Part shown: positions 1,473-56,458 of the stretch, one piece after another
How positions within the stretch are numbered: the stretch's first letter is position 1
Layout of the letters: the number at the start of each line of letters is the position of its first letter
Assembly: GCA_015231915.1 (NCBI GenBank)
Contig: JADGAR010000020.1
Coordinates: forward strand, 1-61,432
Direction of reading: 5' to 3'
DNA length: 61,432 bases
From: Magnetococcales bacterium
GTDB lineage: Bacteria > Pseudomonadota > Magnetococcia > Magnetococcales > Magnetaquicoccaceae
The notes under the pieces: model-generated
Told to the model about the DNA's origin: nothing
Database searches by the model: none
Seen by the model: only the letters and a program-made list of their open reading frames with translations
Program-made: the position numbers and the translations under genes

Positions 1473-1835
1473 TTACCGTTTTTCCTTGAGGAGATGCAGG
1501 TTGGTCAGGAGAGTTGGCAGATCGTCCTGAATGATGCTCTACAAGGTGTCGTTATCGATACCCAAATAACCGTGAATCAATCGATTGCGCGTGGCGATAA
1601 TCTGTCGCCACGGTATGGAGGGCACGGCATCACGCACTATGAGAGGAATATGGGTGGCGGCTTCCCCGATCCGTTCCAAATTGCGTACCGTGGCATCATA
1701 AGTCAGGCCATCCAGCTCAAACCCCTGGCGATCCATTCCTGCCGTGTAGGATAACACCTTCTCGGTAAACGCAATCATGTCGTCGAGAAAGAAGCTCCAG
1801 ATCCTGTTGGTGTCATTCGTTTCCGTTTCAGACAT
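1473..1835 (-). pseudogene. hepT: HepT-like HEPN toxin interrupted by an in-frame amber codon
   Basis: HepT (DUF86) toxins are HEPN ribonucleases that are AMPylated by a MntA partner. The catalytic signature RNRLIHGY (Rx4HxY; R83, H88, Y90) is intact. The frame then hits TAG at 1539-1541 after IDNDTL. Continuing in the same frame without any shift gives SIIQDDLPTLLTN and further residues to TAA at 1473-1475. As I recall the family, a Trp normally sits at this position (DNDTLW-I-DD-P-L), so a single TGG to TAG change explains the interruption. The truncated product is 98 aa; the read-through length of 120 would be normal. The start overlaps the 3' end of the mntA-like gene by 8 bp. Whether the 98-aa form is active, or the codon is suppressed, cannot be read from the sequence. 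Confidence 0.8.
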
Positions 1836-2118
1836 GAATGGCTTCTCGTTCGACGAATGGCCGCAACTCCGGCCTGAGTCCTTTTTCGGTCACCAGATCC
1901 ACCGGGCATCCCAGTAAATCTTCCAGATAGAACTGTACGCCGAAATAGCGAACCGACGTGGCTGGACCATCGAAGGTCACCAGCAGGTCCACGTCACTCT
2001 CTCCATTGGCGGTATCCCGGGCAGTGGAACCGAATAGCGCCAGGCTGGTCACGCCGAATTCCCGGCTCAGATGCTCCTTGTGTCGGGCCAGCAATCGCAT
2101 CACCTGGATATGGCGCAT
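1828..2118 (-). CDS. mntA: MntA-like minimal nucleotidyltransferase (antitoxin of the HepT pair)
   Basis: A 96-aa minimal nucleotidyltransferase with the full GSx10DxD signature: G30-S31 in LALFGSTARD and D42/D44 in SDVDLLVTF. In HepT/MntA systems this enzyme adds AMP to a tyrosine of HepT and silences it. It is the upstream gene of a two-gene unit and overlaps the interrupted hepT by 8 bp, the usual coupled arrangement. Because the antitoxin is intact while the toxin carries a stop codon, the pair may be decaying or may produce a shortened toxin. The role follows from family and neighbourhood; no direct evidence separates it from other MNT-HEPN antitoxins. Confidence 0.85.
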   Translation of the reverse strand: MRHIQVMRLLARHKEHLSREFGVTSLALFGSTARDTANGESDVDLLVTFDGPATSVRYFGVQFYLEDLLGCPVDLVTEKGLRPELRPFVEREAIHV

Positions 2119-16771: not shown

Positions 16772-17191
16772 ATGATCAACCTCGCGCGCGGAATCGTGGT
16801 GGGAGTGATGCTGGGGTTTGCCCTGTTCCACCCCCACAGCTGGTCGAGGGAGGTCTATCTGGCCGCACTGGCGCTGGTGGTGGTGGTGGGGATCCTGATC
16901 CCCCTGGAGGCCCAGGACCGCCGCCTGGACGGCATCGCCGAGGATGTGCGGGCGATCCTGGCGCGGCTGGAACGGATGGAGTCCCTGCCGGTCGAATCCG
17001 TGGCCGAGGAGATGGAGCAGCCGGCGCCTTTCCAGCCCGGCAGGTCCCCCGGTGCGGAGGAGCCGTTCATCCCCGCCATCCAGTCGGGTGGCGGCGAGGG
17101 TCGCACCGTGATGGCCCACGGCCATCGCACCGTGGAACGCAGCGTCGAGGATGTGGCCAGAAAACTGGCCTCCATGCAACGCGGTTCGTGA
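16772..17191 (+). CDS. Small protein with two transmembrane helices, unknown function
   Basis: A 139-aa protein starting 7 bp after the FimV-like gene. Two hydrophobic helices lie at about 6-22 and 28-46, followed by an amphipathic coiled-coil segment (LDGIAEDVRAILARLERMES) and a disordered tail. The tail ends with a short helix, ERSVEDVARKLASMQ, that could dock a partner. No family is recognised. Its position between FimV-like and actin-like genes suggests a membrane adaptor linking the two, which is inference only. Confidence 0.65.
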   Translation: MINLARGIVVGVMLGFALFHPHSWSREVYLAALALVVVVGILIPLEAQDRRLDGIAEDVRAILARLERMESLPVESVAEEMEQPAPFQPGRSPGAEEPFIPAIQSGGGEGRTVMAHGHRTVERSVEDVARKLASMQRGS

Positions 17192-17240
17192 ATTTTCGCG
17201 GTTTTTCCTTTCAGTCCATACATCGGGAGTCAGTCGTCTC

Positions 17241-18269
17241 ATGAACGATTCGCCAACGGAAACCCCCATCGGCAAGGTCAATCTGGGCCTGGACGTGGGC
17301 ACCATGAACCTGGTCTGCGCACGGGTCAACAAGGCCAGCAAGATCGAAATCGCCTCGCTGCGGAATGTCTTTCTCACCGTGGACGACGTGAACATCGAAG
17401 GGATGGATCTTTCGCGGATCAGCCACGCCCGCATCGACGAAGGGGTGTTTATTCTCTCCAACGATGCCTATAATTTTGCTAATATTTTTGGTCATCGCCT
17501 CAACCGCACCATGCAGAAGGGGATGATCAGCCCGGAGGACATCAACTCCACGGACATCCTGGCGGTCATGATCCGCGAGTTGCTCCAGTTGCCGCCAGGC
17601 GCCAAGGCGGGGAAATGCGTCTATTCGGTGCCGGGGGATCCGGTCCATTCGAAGTCGAATGTTCTTTATCATCGCAACATTCTCAGCCGGATCATCGGCG
17701 AGATCGGCTTCGATGCGGAGCCGCTCAACGAGGCGACCGCCATCATCTACGCGGAGTGCGCGGATTCCGATTTTTCCGGCATCAGCATCTCCTTTGGCGC
17801 CGGCTTGACCAACGTGGCGGTGGTCTACAAGTCGATCCCGGTGCTGGAGTTCGCCCTGAACCGGGGCGGGGACTGGATCGACGACAACGTGGCCACCGCC
17901 GTGGGGACCATCCCCAACCGGGTGGTGGCCATCAAGGAAAAGGAGTTCCACCTCGACCGCTACGACAGCGGACGCAAGAAGGAGCGCAAGGTGCGCGAGG
18001 CCCTGGGGTACTATTACAAGAACCTCATCCAGTTCGTGGTCAAGAGCGCCGTGCAGGAACTGGAACGCCGGGATCTGGATCTGGGGTTTCCGGACAGAAT
18101 TCCGATGATCATTTCCGGGGGGACCTCCCTGGCCGGGGGGTTCCTGGATACCATCCGCACCCAGGTGGAGGAGATCGAATGGCCCCTGGATCTCTCCGAG
18201 GTGCGCTACGCCGGTGATCCTTTGAGTTGTGTCGCCCAGGGGTGTTTGATCCGGGCGCTCAAGCAGTGA
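17241..18269 (+). CDS. Divergent actin-like ATPase (ASKHA superfamily)
   Basis: A 342-aa protein with the actin/MreB/ParM nucleotide-binding pattern: a phosphate-1 loop VNLGLDVGTMNLVCARV, a phosphate-2 loop SISFGAGLTNVAVVYK and an adenosine loop PMIISGGTSLAGGF. The phosphate-2 loop has Ser where actins have Asp and Asn in place of the later Thr-Asp, which may change hydrolysis. It does not read as MreB, FtsA, PilM or MamK; motifs such as RGGDWIDDNVATAVG are its own. The start at 17241 is the first Met giving the core with a short leader. Its stop overlaps the start of the peptidase gene (GTGA). Filament formation is inferred from fold and length, not shown. Confidence 0.75.
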   Translation: MNDSPTETPIGKVNLGLDVGTMNLVCARVNKASKIEIASLRNVFLTVDDVNIEGMDLSRISHARIDEGVFILSNDAYNFANIFGHRLNRTMQKGMISPEDINSTDILAVMIRELLQLPPGAKAGKCVYSVPGDPVHSKSNVLYHRNILSRIIGEIGFDAEPLNEATAIIYAECADSDFSGISISFGAGLTNVAVVYKSIPVLEFALNRGGDWIDDNVATAVGTIPNRVVAIKEKEFHLDRYDSGRKKERKVREALGYYYKNLIQFVVKSAVQELERRDLDLGFPDRIPMIISGGTSLAGGFLDTIRTQVEEIEWPLDLSEVRYAGDPLSCVAQGCLIRALKQ

Positions 18270-29718: not shown

Positions 29719-30177
29719 TCAGAAAATCCTGTCGCCTCGTTTTATTTTGACCCCATGTTCGGAGAGTTTTCGGTACTCCTTGGAGCGACTGTTGAATGCT
29801 ACCGATCCGGTTGCAACCCATACCCGTTGCTGCTCGTAGGCGCCTCCTTTATTGAAGGGAGTCTTTTTTGTCCATTGATCCAGCCATTGCGATTTTTTCA
29901 AGACCTCATCGATGTTTCCTGTGCTTGAAGCGGGGTGAATTTCGATCCAGATCAATGCTTCCTTGCCTGTCCCCTGTCTGACGCCCACAAGGTAATCCCA
30001 GCGGGCCGCATTGGGTTGGGTCGCAAGCAGCGCCGAGTCGATATTGACGCTCCCTGACAGGCTTGCGGGGTTGGTGGCGGTGATGTGTTGGCGATCCTGT
30101 TTCAGGAGTGCCTGCAATCCTCTTGCATAGTGGCCGTTGAGTTCGGGGATTTGCTGGACATCCTGTTGAAACGGCAT
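29719..30177 (-). CDS. Small protein coupled to the AAA ATPase, possible nuclease-like partner
   Basis: A 152-aa soluble protein encoded directly after the ATPase gene; a TTG at 30198 even overlaps the ATPase stop, but ATG 30177 has AAGGA at good distance and is preferred. I do not recognise a named family. Residues 58-100 read AARWDYLVGVR, then ALIWIEIHPASS, then IDEVLKKSQWL: an Asp, two strands and E-x-H followed by a helix with lysines. This resembles the core of PD-(D/E)xK-type folds, with His at the usual Lys position (D61, E79, H81, K94/K95). That reading is a weak inference. It converges with the chemoreceptor gene 9 bp away. Confidence 0.6.
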   Translation of the reverse strand: MPFQQDVQQIPELNGHYARGLQALLKQDRQHITATNPASLSGSVNIDSALLATQPNAARWDYLVGVRQGTGKEALIWIEIHPASSTGNIDEVLKKSQWLDQWTKKTPFNKGGAYEQQRVWVATGSVAFNSRSKEYRKLSEHGVKIKRGDRIF

Positions 30178-30194
30178 GGAGGCATTCCTTGTGG

Positions 30195-31343
30195 TCAAGA
30201 GTTGGCCATGACATCCGCCACGACCTCATTGGCCAGATCGCTGAAGTGCAACAATCCTCCCCAGGAACTCTCCATGGCAGAGGATGCGTCGCTGTTCAAA
30301 TGGGTGATCTCCCGGGTGACGAATCCTGCTTCGGTTTTTTGATAATAATAAACACATGATTTTTTTGTTGTGATTTGATGCATCATATTTTGCATATTTT
30401 GGGAAGGGGTCGGCATTGCAAAAAGTTTGAACAAAGCCTGAATATCTCCGCGATGCTTGCGAATCGTTTCCATGGCCCAGATCAATTCCAGGATTTGCGG
30501 GGAATGGGTGGAGATGATCACCTTGTAACCACGAGACAGCAGTTCCAGGATCATCAACAGTACGGAGGTGATTGCGCGCGGATGCAGGCCCATTTCCGGT
30601 TCCTCGATGATGACCCATTCCAATGCATCACGTCGCGTTGTGCCTCCAGTGGGCAGCAACCAGCTCAGGGTCAACAACAGAGGGACCAACTCGCGTTGAC
30701 CGGCGGACCATACCATATAGGGGAGTTGTGTGTTCTGGCCTTCCAGGACAAGGCGTTTCTGGCTGCGGACCTTGTCGATTTTCAGCGTGAACTCGCCAAA
30801 TACGGTTGCCTGCAATTGCTCGCGATGTTCCTGGCGCAGCCGATCCGGGTTGGGAAATAGATGGTTTTCTTTTGTTGATTCCTTTTTTCCTTCAAAACGT
30901 TGTCTCAGTTCTTCACTGAAGGCGCGAACCATGTAAGGGTCGCCCGATGAGTAATTCAAAAAATTTCTTGGCCATCCATCGCTTAGTGTAATTACTCTTT
31001 GCGCGGGAACGATGATGACAGATTTGTAGTTTTGTTTTCTGTCTTTGAGGGTCGCCGGGTTGGGAATGGGACGATTGTCAAGCAATACGCTGCTTGCTGG
31101 TGTCCAGGAGGTATGCATCCCTTCGCCGAAATAAAGATCCAGAAATTCGTTCAAGTCATCCCCGGTTTCAAATCCATGCTCCATCCATTGGGTGCGAATT
31201 TGTCGTGCATCCAACAGCCATTTGATCCATTGCAAGGTTATACTCTTGCCGCATGCTTGCGGCCCTACGAGCACAGTCAGGTCCGCGAATTTGATATTCG
31301 CCTCCTTGACGGGTCCAATGTTGTAAATTTTTATATTTTTCAA
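30195..31343 (-). CDS. AAA ATPase of the OLD/SMC-like ABC class (AAA_15/AAA_21)
   Basis: A 382-aa ATPase with an SMC/Rad50-type head split by an insert. Walker A is GPQACGKS (27-34), the ABC signature is WSAGQRE, Walker B is WVIIEEPEMGLHP and the switch His is in ISTHSP. No TOPRIM domain or membrane segment is present. Such ATPases are common regulators in two-gene defence systems and pair with small effectors. I choose a TTG start at 31343 because AAGGAT sits 5-7 nt upstream and the next residues, KNIKIYNIGPVKEANIKF, match the family's first strand. The gene is visibly less GC-rich than its neighbours, which fits acquisition. It is coupled to the small protein downstream. Confidence 0.85.
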   Translation of the reverse strand: MKNIKIYNIGPVKEANIKFADLTVLVGPQACGKSITLQWIKWLLDARQIRTQWMEHGFETGDDLNEFLDLYFGEGMHTSWTPASSVLLDNRPIPNPATLKDRKQNYKSVIIVPAQRVITLSDGWPRNFLNYSSGDPYMVRAFSEELRQRFEGKKESTKENHLFPNPDRLRQEHREQLQATVFGEFTLKIDKVRSQKRLVLEGQNTQLPYMVWSAGQRELVPLLLTLSWLLPTGGTTRRDALEWVIIEEPEMGLHPRAITSVLLMILELLSRGYKVIISTHSPQILELIWAMETIRKHRGDIQALFKLFAMPTPSQNMQNMMHQITTKKSCVYYYQKTEAGFVTREITHLNSDASSAMESSWGGLLHFSDLANEVVADVMANS

Positions 31344-31353
31344 ATTGGTATCC

Positions 31354-32883
31354 TTATTGATTCGTGGCGAATCGCACCGACTGGCCATCCTCCACCACGA
31401 AACGGGCCAGTGTGGTGATGCCGGAATCCTCCTGGCGCGGGTCATCCAGCACCCGCAAGGCCACCTCGGCCCGCTCGGGGGTCAGATCCACCACCCCGTA
31501 GCCCCGTTTTTCGGTATTGACCAGCAGCGTGTGGGGATTCTGGGCGGCATGCCGCTCCGCCTCCTTCTGGGAGCGCCCCATGTGGGAGGTGATGCTGGTG
31601 CCGACGAACTCGCTGGCCACCACTGGCGAACGGATATCGTAGGGGTCCCGATGCAGACGCGCCACCCAGTTCTGATGGATGTCGCCGCCGATGATCAGGG
31701 TATTGCGCGGCCTGTGGCGCACCAGCGACCCGATCAGCCGCTCCCGTGATTGGTGAAATCCGTCCCAACGGTCCACAGAGGCATTCTTGCCCGCGCCGGA
31801 CGGATAATTGGCCGGCGTGATGCGATTCTGTTGCACGATGAGGTTCCAATGCACCCCCTGCCGGGTGCACTCTCCGATCCCCTCGTCCAGCCACTGCTCC
31901 TGGGGGAAACCGAGCATGCTGCGACTTTTGTCCACCGCCACGTTCCGGTATTGACGGCAATCCAGCAGGTGAAAGGTGGCCAGGCGGCCAAATGCGACGC
32001 GATCGTAAATGCGCAATTCCTGGCCGCGCAGCAATCCTTCCACGCCGGCCAGCATGGTCGAGGGGCGCAGGGGCATGTGCTCGTAGTAGGCCTGATAGGC
32101 TGCGGCCCGCATTTTGGCAAAATGCTCCGTGGCGTAAAGGGAATGCAGACCGGCGTAATCGTTTTCCACCTCGTGATCGTCCCAGATCACCAGCCAGGGG
32201 CAGTGGGCATGCATGGCCTGCAACCATGGATCGCTCTTGTAGATGGCGTAGCGGGCGCGATAGTCATCCAGGGTGCGCGCAGCGGGGAGTTGGTGATGGC
32301 GCACGGCAAAGGCCGAGGTGCTGGATGCGTATTCGTAGATGTAATCCCCGACAAAGAGCACCAGTTCCGGCTGCTCTGCGAGCATGTGGCGATACCCGGC
32401 GTAAAAACCGTGTTCCCAGTGCTGGCAGGAGGCGTAGGCGAAGCGTATGCGCGCCGGGGTCCCGGCCTGGGGCAGGGTGCGGGCTTTGCCGATGGTGCTC
32501 ACCCACTCGCCCAGACGAAACCGGTAGCCGTACCAGCGATCTGCCGCCAATCCCGCCACTTCGGCATGCACCGAATGGGCAAGCTGCGCCAAGGCCGCTG
32601 TCGCGCCCTTGGCGAGGATGCGGGTCGGATCGTCCGGTTCGAACACCTCCCAATCCACCAGGACGTCCTGGTCCGTCGGCAGATTCTCGCCCATCAGCCG
32701 GGTCCACAGGACAAAACCGTCATGGGTGGGAGAGCCGCTGGCCACCCCCAGACCAAAGGGCGAACCCTCCGGTCGCCACGCCACGGTTGCGCCGGTCCCG
32801 TTGCGCGACAGGACCAGATGCGTGGCGAAGGCGGTCAGGCCCAGCAAAAACGCACGGCGTCCGCAGGTCGTGGCGCGTATCAT
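31354..32883 (-). CDS. phoD: PhoD-like Tat-exported phosphodiesterase/alkaline phosphatase
   Basis: A 509-aa secreted metallo-phosphoesterase. The N-terminus has a twin-arginine signal (CGRRAFLLGLTAF), then a PhoD N-terminal domain (FGLGVASGSPTHDGFVLWTR) and the catalytic core with ASCQ, VGDYIYEY, WDDHEVENDYAG and IIGGDIHQNW. PhoD enzymes release phosphate from phosphodiesters or teichoic-type polymers using Fe and Ca. The start ATG overlaps the stop of the PilB/GspE-like gene by ATGA, an unusual pairing. The gene ends 10 bp before the start of the ATPase of the candidate defence pair. Confidence 0.93.
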   Translation of the reverse strand: MIRATTCGRRAFLLGLTAFATHLVLSRNGTGATVAWRPEGSPFGLGVASGSPTHDGFVLWTRLMGENLPTDQDVLVDWEVFEPDDPTRILAKGATAALAQLAHSVHAEVAGLAADRWYGYRFRLGEWVSTIGKARTLPQAGTPARIRFAYASCQHWEHGFYAGYRHMLAEQPELVLFVGDYIYEYASSTSAFAVRHHQLPAARTLDDYRARYAIYKSDPWLQAMHAHCPWLVIWDDHEVENDYAGLHSLYATEHFAKMRAAAYQAYYEHMPLRPSTMLAGVEGLLRGQELRIYDRVAFGRLATFHLLDCRQYRNVAVDKSRSMLGFPQEQWLDEGIGECTRQGVHWNLIVQQNRITPANYPSGAGKNASVDRWDGFHQSRERLIGSLVRHRPRNTLIIGGDIHQNWVARLHRDPYDIRSPVVASEFVGTSITSHMGRSQKEAERHAAQNPHTLLVNTEKRGYGVVDLTPERAEVALRVLDDPRQEDSGITTLARFVVEDGQSVRFATNQ

Positions 32884-55635: not shown

Positions 55636-55875
55636 ATGATGGCGCACGCGCAGCAAAAGATTGAGATTCCCCTGGACGATGAAGATGCTCTGATCACTGC
55701 CGCCGCCTTGAGTGATCCAGACAATCCGCTCTTGACGGATCATGAATTGGCCCAGTTTTCAGGTCGTGCGCGGGAGCGGATCGGTGCATCGCATGGTCGC
55801 GGAGTCGTGATCACATTCAATGAATCAATGTCCATGGGGCCACCTAGTAGGTCTATGGCGGCGATGATTTCATGA
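55636..55875 (+). pseudogene. BrnA-like antitoxin fragment cut short by the ccdAB module
   Basis: The first 50 residues (KIEIPLDDEDALITAAALSD and PLLTDHELAQFSGRARERIG) look like the N-terminus of BrnA-type antitoxins, which normally continue with a ribbon-helix-helix DNA-binding domain. Here the frame instead runs antisense through the end of ccdB and stops. So the C-terminal domain is lost. No BrnT toxin gene is recognisable upstream. It converges with and overlaps ccdB by more than 130 bp. Confidence 0.5.
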
Positions 55876-56138
55876 CGCATGGTATGTAATGAACCCACCA
55901 CCTGTTTCAGTTCGGAATGCCGGACAGCGGCCATTTCCGCTGTGGAAAGGAAATAGACTCCATCGCTCAGTGCAACGGTTGGGTTGAGGATTCGGATCAG
56001 TGGTGTGTCCGGGCAGACCGGATAAAGTGGAATAACTATTCTTGTCCTCAAAGTCTGCAGCAGATCACTCTGTATCTCTACCAGAAAAGCCACTTGGCTG
56101 CCTGCTCTGCGGTATTCGTACAGGTCGAACTGAGCCAT
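55740..56138 (-). CDS. ccdB: CcdB-type gyrase-inhibitor toxin with extended C-terminus
   Basis: A CcdB toxin, which poisons DNA gyrase. The family-typical start MAQFDLYEYRRAG, core VEIQSDLLQTLRTRIVIPLY and ALSDGVYFLSTAEMAAV are all present. Normal CcdB is 101-105 aa and ends in the gyrase-contacting Trp-Gly-Ile or similar tail; this one is 132 aa, and after HEIIAAIDLLGG it continues with about 30 unrelated residues that read antisense through the BrnA-like fragment. Loss of the native terminal residues may reduce toxicity. It shares one base with the ccdA stop. Confidence 0.88.
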   Translation of the reverse strand: MAQFDLYEYRRAGSQVAFLVEIQSDLLQTLRTRIVIPLYPVCPDTPLIRILNPTVALSDGVYFLSTAEMAAVRHSELKQVVGSLHTMRHEIIAAIDLLGGPMDIDSLNVITTPRPCDAPIRSRARPENWANS

Positions 56139-56386
56139 CAGAAAAGCCGCTTGCCATCATTGAACAGGCCATCCCGTTCGATGCGTTGGTTGTAGGCCTC
56201 CATGGCGGGTCGGTTTTCCTCCTGCCAGGCTTGTCGTTTGCGCTCGGCAATCACCTGGGCAAGATGGCTTTCCAACTCCTGGGAGATGTGGATCTTCAGT
56301 GCCTTGGCCTGGGTCGCCAGTGCGCTGTTGATGCGCACGTGAAGGGGACGCTTCGGGGCAAGCGGATCGATCATCGGCGTTTCCAT
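56138..56386 (-). CDS. ccdA: CcdA-type antitoxin
   Basis: An 82-aa CcdA antitoxin: a ribbon-helix-helix N-terminus (RPLHVRINSALATQAKALKI), then a flexible toxin-wrapping C-terminus with the family pattern RQAWQEENRPAMEAYNQRIE and GLF at the end. It begins at ATG 56386 with GGAG 9 nt upstream and ends in TGATG with ccdB. Intact and full length. CcdA with CcdB represses the shared promoter, which should lie in the 56387-56458 gap. Confidence 0.92.
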   Translation of the reverse strand: METPMIDPLAPKRPLHVRINSALATQAKALKIHISQELESHLAQVIAERKRQAWQEENRPAMEAYNQRIERDGLFNDGKRLF

Positions 56387-56458
56387 GGCGGCCAACTCCA
56401 AGAGGTTGCAATGGTATGCGCATGCATGATATGCACAACCTTCCTGTATTTTCAACAG

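What the first reader, a model, noticed from the sequence alone, without database searches (positions are those of the whole stretch)
1473..1835. hepT interrupted by a single in-frame amber codon with intact catalytic motif and intact downstream frame
The RNase motif Rx4HxY is intact and the 21 codons after TAG at 1539-1541 still encode the normal HepT C-terminus with no frameshift. This is a recent Trp-to-stop change, a truncated but perhaps active form, or a suppressed codon (amber decoding). The antitoxin mntA is intact.
Basis: partly seen in the sequence, partly recalled or inferred. Interest (0 to 1): 0.6.

Follow-up and report, generated by a model that had tools for sequence, protein, structure and literature searches.

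The report
Broken HepT toxin, antitoxin kept
A magnetotactic-type bacterium carries a toxin-antitoxin gene pair whose toxin gene has been cut short by an ordinary stop mutation while its antitoxin gene stays intact, as also seen in many related bacteria.

Summary
A hepT gene on the minus strand (1835 to 1473) has an in-frame TAG at 1541-1539, at a tryptophan codon; the RX4HXY motif, the 21 codons after it and the upstream mntA are intact. The window is a contig of a Magnetococcales genome. All 155 undamaged relatives surveyed have tryptophan there; two other genomes carry the same stop, a fourth another stop. A survey of 180 distinct hepT genes makes this ordinary: 24 are damaged by stops, frameshifts or truncation, 19 of those 24 keep an intact mntA, and no undamaged hepT has a damaged mntA. 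Eight of the stops fall on the gene's three Trp codons (five TAG, three TGA), so recurrence at codon 99 needs no special cause. The stop removes almost the whole last helix of the predicted HEPN bundle; published single changes beyond the motif already abolish HepT toxicity. No amber-decoding tRNA was found (incomplete census) and TAG behaves as a normal stop. Best reading: a recent loss-of-function mutation of a type VII toxin, antitoxin retained. An assembly error cannot be excluded without reads. Low interest.

The parts
1473..1835 (-). hepT-like toxin gene (PF01934) interrupted by an in-frame stop; 98 codons, TAG, 21 codons, TAA
1539..1541 (-). in-frame TAG at codon 99, a position that is Trp in all undamaged relatives surveyed
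1566..1589 (-). RX4HXY motif (RNRLIHGY, residues 83-90), before the stop
   Evidence: motif as defined in PMC7641770
1476..1538 (-). 21 codons after the stop, still HepT C-terminal helix sequence
1828..2118 (-). mntA-like antitoxin gene (PF01909), intact, GSX10DXD present, overlaps the hepT start by 8 bases

Best explanation
This is a type VII (HepT/MntA) toxin-antitoxin locus whose toxin has recently been inactivated by a single nonsense mutation at a Trp codon, with the antitoxin retained. Shown: the stop, the intact frame and motif, the intact mntA, the Trp in relatives, and the same asymmetry (toxin broken, antitoxin kept) across the family. Inferred: the ribosome ends at TAG; the 98-residue product lacks the last helix of the HEPN bundle and is non-toxic or unstable; MntA is left without a working partner and is expected to decay later. 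Toxin-null alleles are tolerated because a cell without the toxin is unharmed, whereas losing the antitoxin first is not tolerated. Trp codons are hit most because two of their single-base transitions give a stop.
For: Frame and stop. Nearest relative G001 has Trp. Tail of G000 against G001: 6.0 synonymous and 3.0 nonsynonymous differences, dN 0.077, dS 0.70, so the tail was translated for most of the time since the split. Survey: of 180 distinct hepT genes, 24 are damaged, 155 undamaged and 1 runs off its contig. mntA is intact in 19 of the 24, damaged or missing in 4, off the contig in 1; of the 155 undamaged, 153 have an intact mntA and 2 run off the contig. 19 against 0 gives 2 x 0.5^19, about 4e-6 (my arithmetic; related genes are counted as independent). 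Stops at Trp13 (3), Trp76 (1), Trp99 (4): five TAG, three TGA. AlphaFold2 model of the read-through frame: pLDDT 90.6, last helix 95-119, nearest folds 5yep and 6m6u HepT. Single changes at 107 and 118 of S. oneidensis HepT, beyond its motif, abolish toxicity; deleting the antitoxin alone failed while deleting the toxin or the pair worked (PMC4621449).
Against: The rest of the gene is nearly undecayed, so an active short form or rare read-through cannot be ruled out by sequence. The only unusual residue, Arg at position 55 (Leu or Ile in all 156 relatives), aligns with Arg in the working S. oneidensis HepT, so it is not proof of a second lesion. One departure at a conserved column is common (39 of 156 have one or more); a radical one is rarer (9 of 156). 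No reads or expression data.
Confidence: 0.85

Rival explanations
1. Consensus or assembly error: the real chromosome has a sense codon here.
For: Draft contig, gene 1.5 kb from its end, a single base at issue, no reads held.
Against: Two more genomes carry the same stop and a fourth another stop at the same codon; several damaged copies lie on contigs of at least 1.9 Mb (G363:C1, G236:C1, G232:C1, G289:C1, G945:C1), so lesions of this kind are real in the family. This does not prove this one.
Confidence: 0.07
2. The 98-residue product is functional: a C-terminally shortened, attenuated or antitoxin-titrating HepT selected more than once.
For: Motif intact in all three single-stop Trp99 genes; the stop recurs in G000, G039 and G158.
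Against: It lacks the last helix; the recurrence is not significant when any codon may be the one hit (three of nine events, P 0.10-0.45 over transition biases 1-8, computed before two more Trp13 stops were found); stops at Trp13 and Trp76, whose products lack the motif, also occur with mntA kept (L205, L219); the family's damage includes frameshifts.
Confidence: 0.05
3. Amber suppression or programmed read-through gives some 120-residue HepT.
For: Tail conserved; the same TAG in two families of the order.
Against: No CUA tRNA among 35 found (census lacks Tyr, His, Cys and Ile-GAT, so incomplete); TAG ends 27 of 223 long frames and 4 of 17 post-TAG extensions look coding-like, against 25 of 103 for TGA and 13 of 36 for TAA; other stops and frameshifts occur in the same gene elsewhere.
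Confidence: 0.02
4. One shared event: G000 and G039 inherited one TAG allele by descent or transfer, and G001 reverted.
For: The protein tree puts G039 beside G000 plus G001 (support 96/0); one gain plus one reversion needs two changes, as do two gains.
Against: G000 with G001 is supported 99/90; G000-G039 synonymous sites are saturated, so an untranslated tail would have decayed but has not. G158, in another order, needs a separate event in any case.
Confidence: 0.01

Closest known systems
HepT/MntA type VII toxin-antitoxin pair (SO_3166/SO_3165, Shewanella oneidensis; PDB 5yep, 6m6u)
   Same: HEPN fold, RX4HXY in the toxin, GSX10DXD in the antitoxin beside it; 5yep is the best fold match of the read-through model and 6m6u/5yep the best sequence profile matches
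   Different: About 17% identical in the fold alignment; the S. oneidensis toxin is full length and toxic; here it is cut short after the motif; Trp99 aligns with Val there
Decaying chromosomal toxin-antitoxin loci such as ccdO157 of E. coli
   Same: Loss by deletion or nonsense mutation and inactive toxin mutants are described in the review PMC7167474 (passages)
   Different: Another toxin family; the original ccdO157 paper was not read
PADLOC candidate PDC-S09
   Same: MntA here matches several PDC-S09 models, best 2.9e-27
   Different: A candidate by database label only; the toxin has no PADLOC match

Membership tests
HepT/MntA class I pair (as defined in PMC7641770, passages) | PF01934 toxin gene next to a PF01909 antitoxin gene | tested here: met
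   70.9 bits (98 aa) and 64.9 bits, both over the cut-offs; genes overlap
HepT/MntA class I pair (as defined in PMC7641770, passages) | RX4HXY in the toxin and GSX10DXD in the antitoxin | tested here: met
   read
HepT/MntA class I pair (as defined in PMC7641770, passages) | complete toxin reading frame (my criterion for a working pair) | tested here: not met
   in-frame stop at codon 99: it is a broken member, not a working one
NCBIfam NF047751 HepT_toxin / NF047752 MntA_antitoxin equivalogs | score over the curated cut-off of 60 bits | tested here: not met
   26.1 bits (98 aa), 37.6 bits (read-through), 43.4 bits (MntA)
HepT/MntA class I pair (as defined in PMC7641770, passages) | RNase toxicity, neutralised by AMPylation of the motif tyrosine | not testable with these tools
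   needs expression
Amber-recoded gene | a tRNA that reads UAG in the genome | tested here: inconclusive
   none among 35 tRNAs, but several standard tRNAs are missing from the same census
Amber-recoded gene | coding-like sequence after TAG stops elsewhere in the genome | tested here: not met
   341 kb sampled of 4.02 Mb

The most novel reading that the evidence does not exclude
The stop at Trp99 is a recurrent, selected truncation: a HEPN toxin without its last helix that keeps its motif, stays bound or AMPylated by MntA, and works as an attenuated or regulatory form, made independently in at least three lineages.
Probability: 0.04. Interest if true: 0.5.

Novelty: new member of a known kind. 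Interest (0 to 1): 0.15.

Why it matters
The single locus matters little. The survey behind it gives a clear count for this subfamily: about one toxin gene in eight is broken (24 of 180), mostly with the antitoxin intact, and never the reverse among 155 undamaged toxin genes. That is what an active toxin-antitoxin pair should leave behind, and indirect evidence that these HepT proteins are really toxic to their hosts and that MntA is the antitoxin.

Tried and rejected
Viral contigs held no relative and plasmids only distant ones, all under 60% identical. A wider tRNA search gave the same 35. A single-sequence search of solved structures found nothing; the profile found HepT. Read-through at a conserved amber was considered once G039 and then G158 showed the same stop; it was dropped when TGA at the same codon, stops at the other two Trp codons, and frameshifts turned up. 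Position 55 Arg as a second lesion was considered and weakened. One row was corrected: L283, first called intact with mntA missing, has a stop at Trp13, and L219 has a Trp13 stop besides its truncation. L060 and one other undamaged hepT have mntA cut by the contig end; L010 and L281 were flagged 'fs?' only for duplicate alignments. The survey is not exhaustive: one search kept 80 of 197 candidates, and matches without a locus were fetched for only, not; rows under 85 bits or with identical DNA were left out. Papers: PMC4621449 (section 10 and passages), PMC7641770, PMC11586414 and PMC7167474 (passages); others only as search listings. No claim is made that this is unpublished.

Full report
Observation. 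On the minus strand, 1835..1473 reads 98 sense codons from ATG, TAG at 1541..1539, 21 sense codons and TAA. The RX4HXY motif (residues 83-90) precedes the stop. mntA lies just upstream (2118..1828), open and with GSX10DXD. Both match their Pfam families. Neither reaches the NCBIfam equivalog cut-offs.

Where it is. The window is contig C46 of a 4.02-Mb, 133-contig genome. That placement is an inference from those lengths. The genome has other HEPN genes, including an uninterrupted PF01934 gene on C40.

The position. Tryptophan stands at codon 99 in 108 of the 113 loci aligned first; four rows read TAG and one did not reach the position. Three of those four rows are this gene and the fourth is G039, in another family of the order. 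In the order, 14 of 48 genomes have the gene (E up to 1e-20) and 2 of the 14 carry this TAG. A third genome, G158, from the order of a Methylovulum genome, carries it too, and G139 carries TGA there together with a second stop and a changed motif histidine.

One event or several? In the protein tree this gene pairs with G001, which has Trp (99/90), and the two TAG genes of the order need two changes. Between G000 and G001 the tail shows 6.0 synonymous and 3.0 nonsynonymous differences; between G000 and G039 synonymous sites are saturated. An old, untranslated tail would not look like this. Recent independent mutations fit best.

Survey. Loci and stretches gave 180 distinct hepT genes of at least 85 bits. 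With two corrections, 24 are damaged (12 by stops alone, L283 included; 12 with frameshift or truncation, some also with stops), 155 are undamaged and 1 runs off its contig. Among the 24, mntA is intact in 19, damaged or missing in 4 (L222, L223, L283, L292), off the contig in 1 (L221). Among the 155, mntA is intact in 153 and off the contig in 2. The search was by hepT, so it would miss lost toxins rather than lost antitoxins; the asymmetry is if anything understated. Some genes share a lesion by descent (L194 with L221; L235 with L236), so events are fewer than genes. Several damaged genes lie on contigs of at least 1.9 Mb, so draft assembly is not the general cause.

Why codon 99? The gene has three invariant or nearly invariant Trp codons. 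Stops fall on Trp13 three times, Trp76 once and Trp99 four times: five TAG and three TGA. In a model of single-base changes on the undamaged genes these three codons are the likeliest or among the likeliest to become stops. Three of nine single-stop events at some one codon has P 0.10 to 0.45, and at codon 99 named beforehand 0.014 to 0.15; four of twelve has P 0.03 to 0.30 at some one codon, and 0.005 to 0.10 at codon 99, for transition biases 1 to 8 (run before the two extra Trp13 stops were found). The lower ends of these ranges are suggestive, but no special cause is needed.

What the stop does. The model of the read-through frame (mean pLDDT 90.6) ends in a helix from 95 to 119; its best fold matches are HepT of S. 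oneidensis (5yep, TM-score 0.69 by the query, E 0.014). The stop leaves four residues of that helix. In S. oneidensis HepT, error-prone PCR found single changes at 15, 56, 70, 94, 107 and 118 that abolish toxicity (PMC4621449, section 10); 107 and 118 lie beyond the motif, and by the alignment residue 113 there answers to codon 99 here. In that strain the toxin gene or the pair could be deleted but not the antitoxin alone, the asymmetry seen in the survey.

Suppression. ARAGORN read all 35 tRNA loci found and none has a CUA anticodon. The set lacks Tyr, His, Cys and Ile-GAT, so it is incomplete. In a 341-kb sample TAG ends 27 of 223 long frames, and coding-like extensions after TAG (4 of 17) are no commoner than after TGA (25 of 103) or TAA (13 of 36). 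These are mechanical frames, so this is weak but negative.

Verdict. An ordinary, recent loss-of-function allele of a chromosomal type VII toxin with its antitoxin kept. Loss of toxin-antitoxin loci by nonsense mutation, and inactive toxin mutants, are described for other families (PMC7167474, passages). The one open doubt is the absence of reads.

Noticed in passing
window 55740-56455 (-): A complete CcdA/CcdB toxin-antitoxin pair (Pfam), so the same contig holds a second, apparently intact pair.
   Followed up: no
window 17151-18269 (+): A 372-aa frame matches Volactin (PF25216, 2.1e-72), a family whose name I recall from archaeal actin-like proteins.
   Followed up: no
window 30195-31445 (-) and 29719-30198 (-): An AAA_21/AAA_15 ATPase frame followed by an overlapping 159-aa frame; the arrangement could be a defence pair. 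The smaller frame was not searched.
   Followed up: no
L205 (also L103), Gallionella MAG, hepT codon 13; L283 and L219, codon 13: Stops at Trp13 of hepT in three other genomes (TAG, TGA, TGA).
   Followed up: yes
L194 and L221, hepT codon 30: Two related genomes share a TAG at the same Tyr codon, so a broken hepT seems to have persisted through a split between two species; each gene also departs at one otherwise conserved column.
   Followed up: partly
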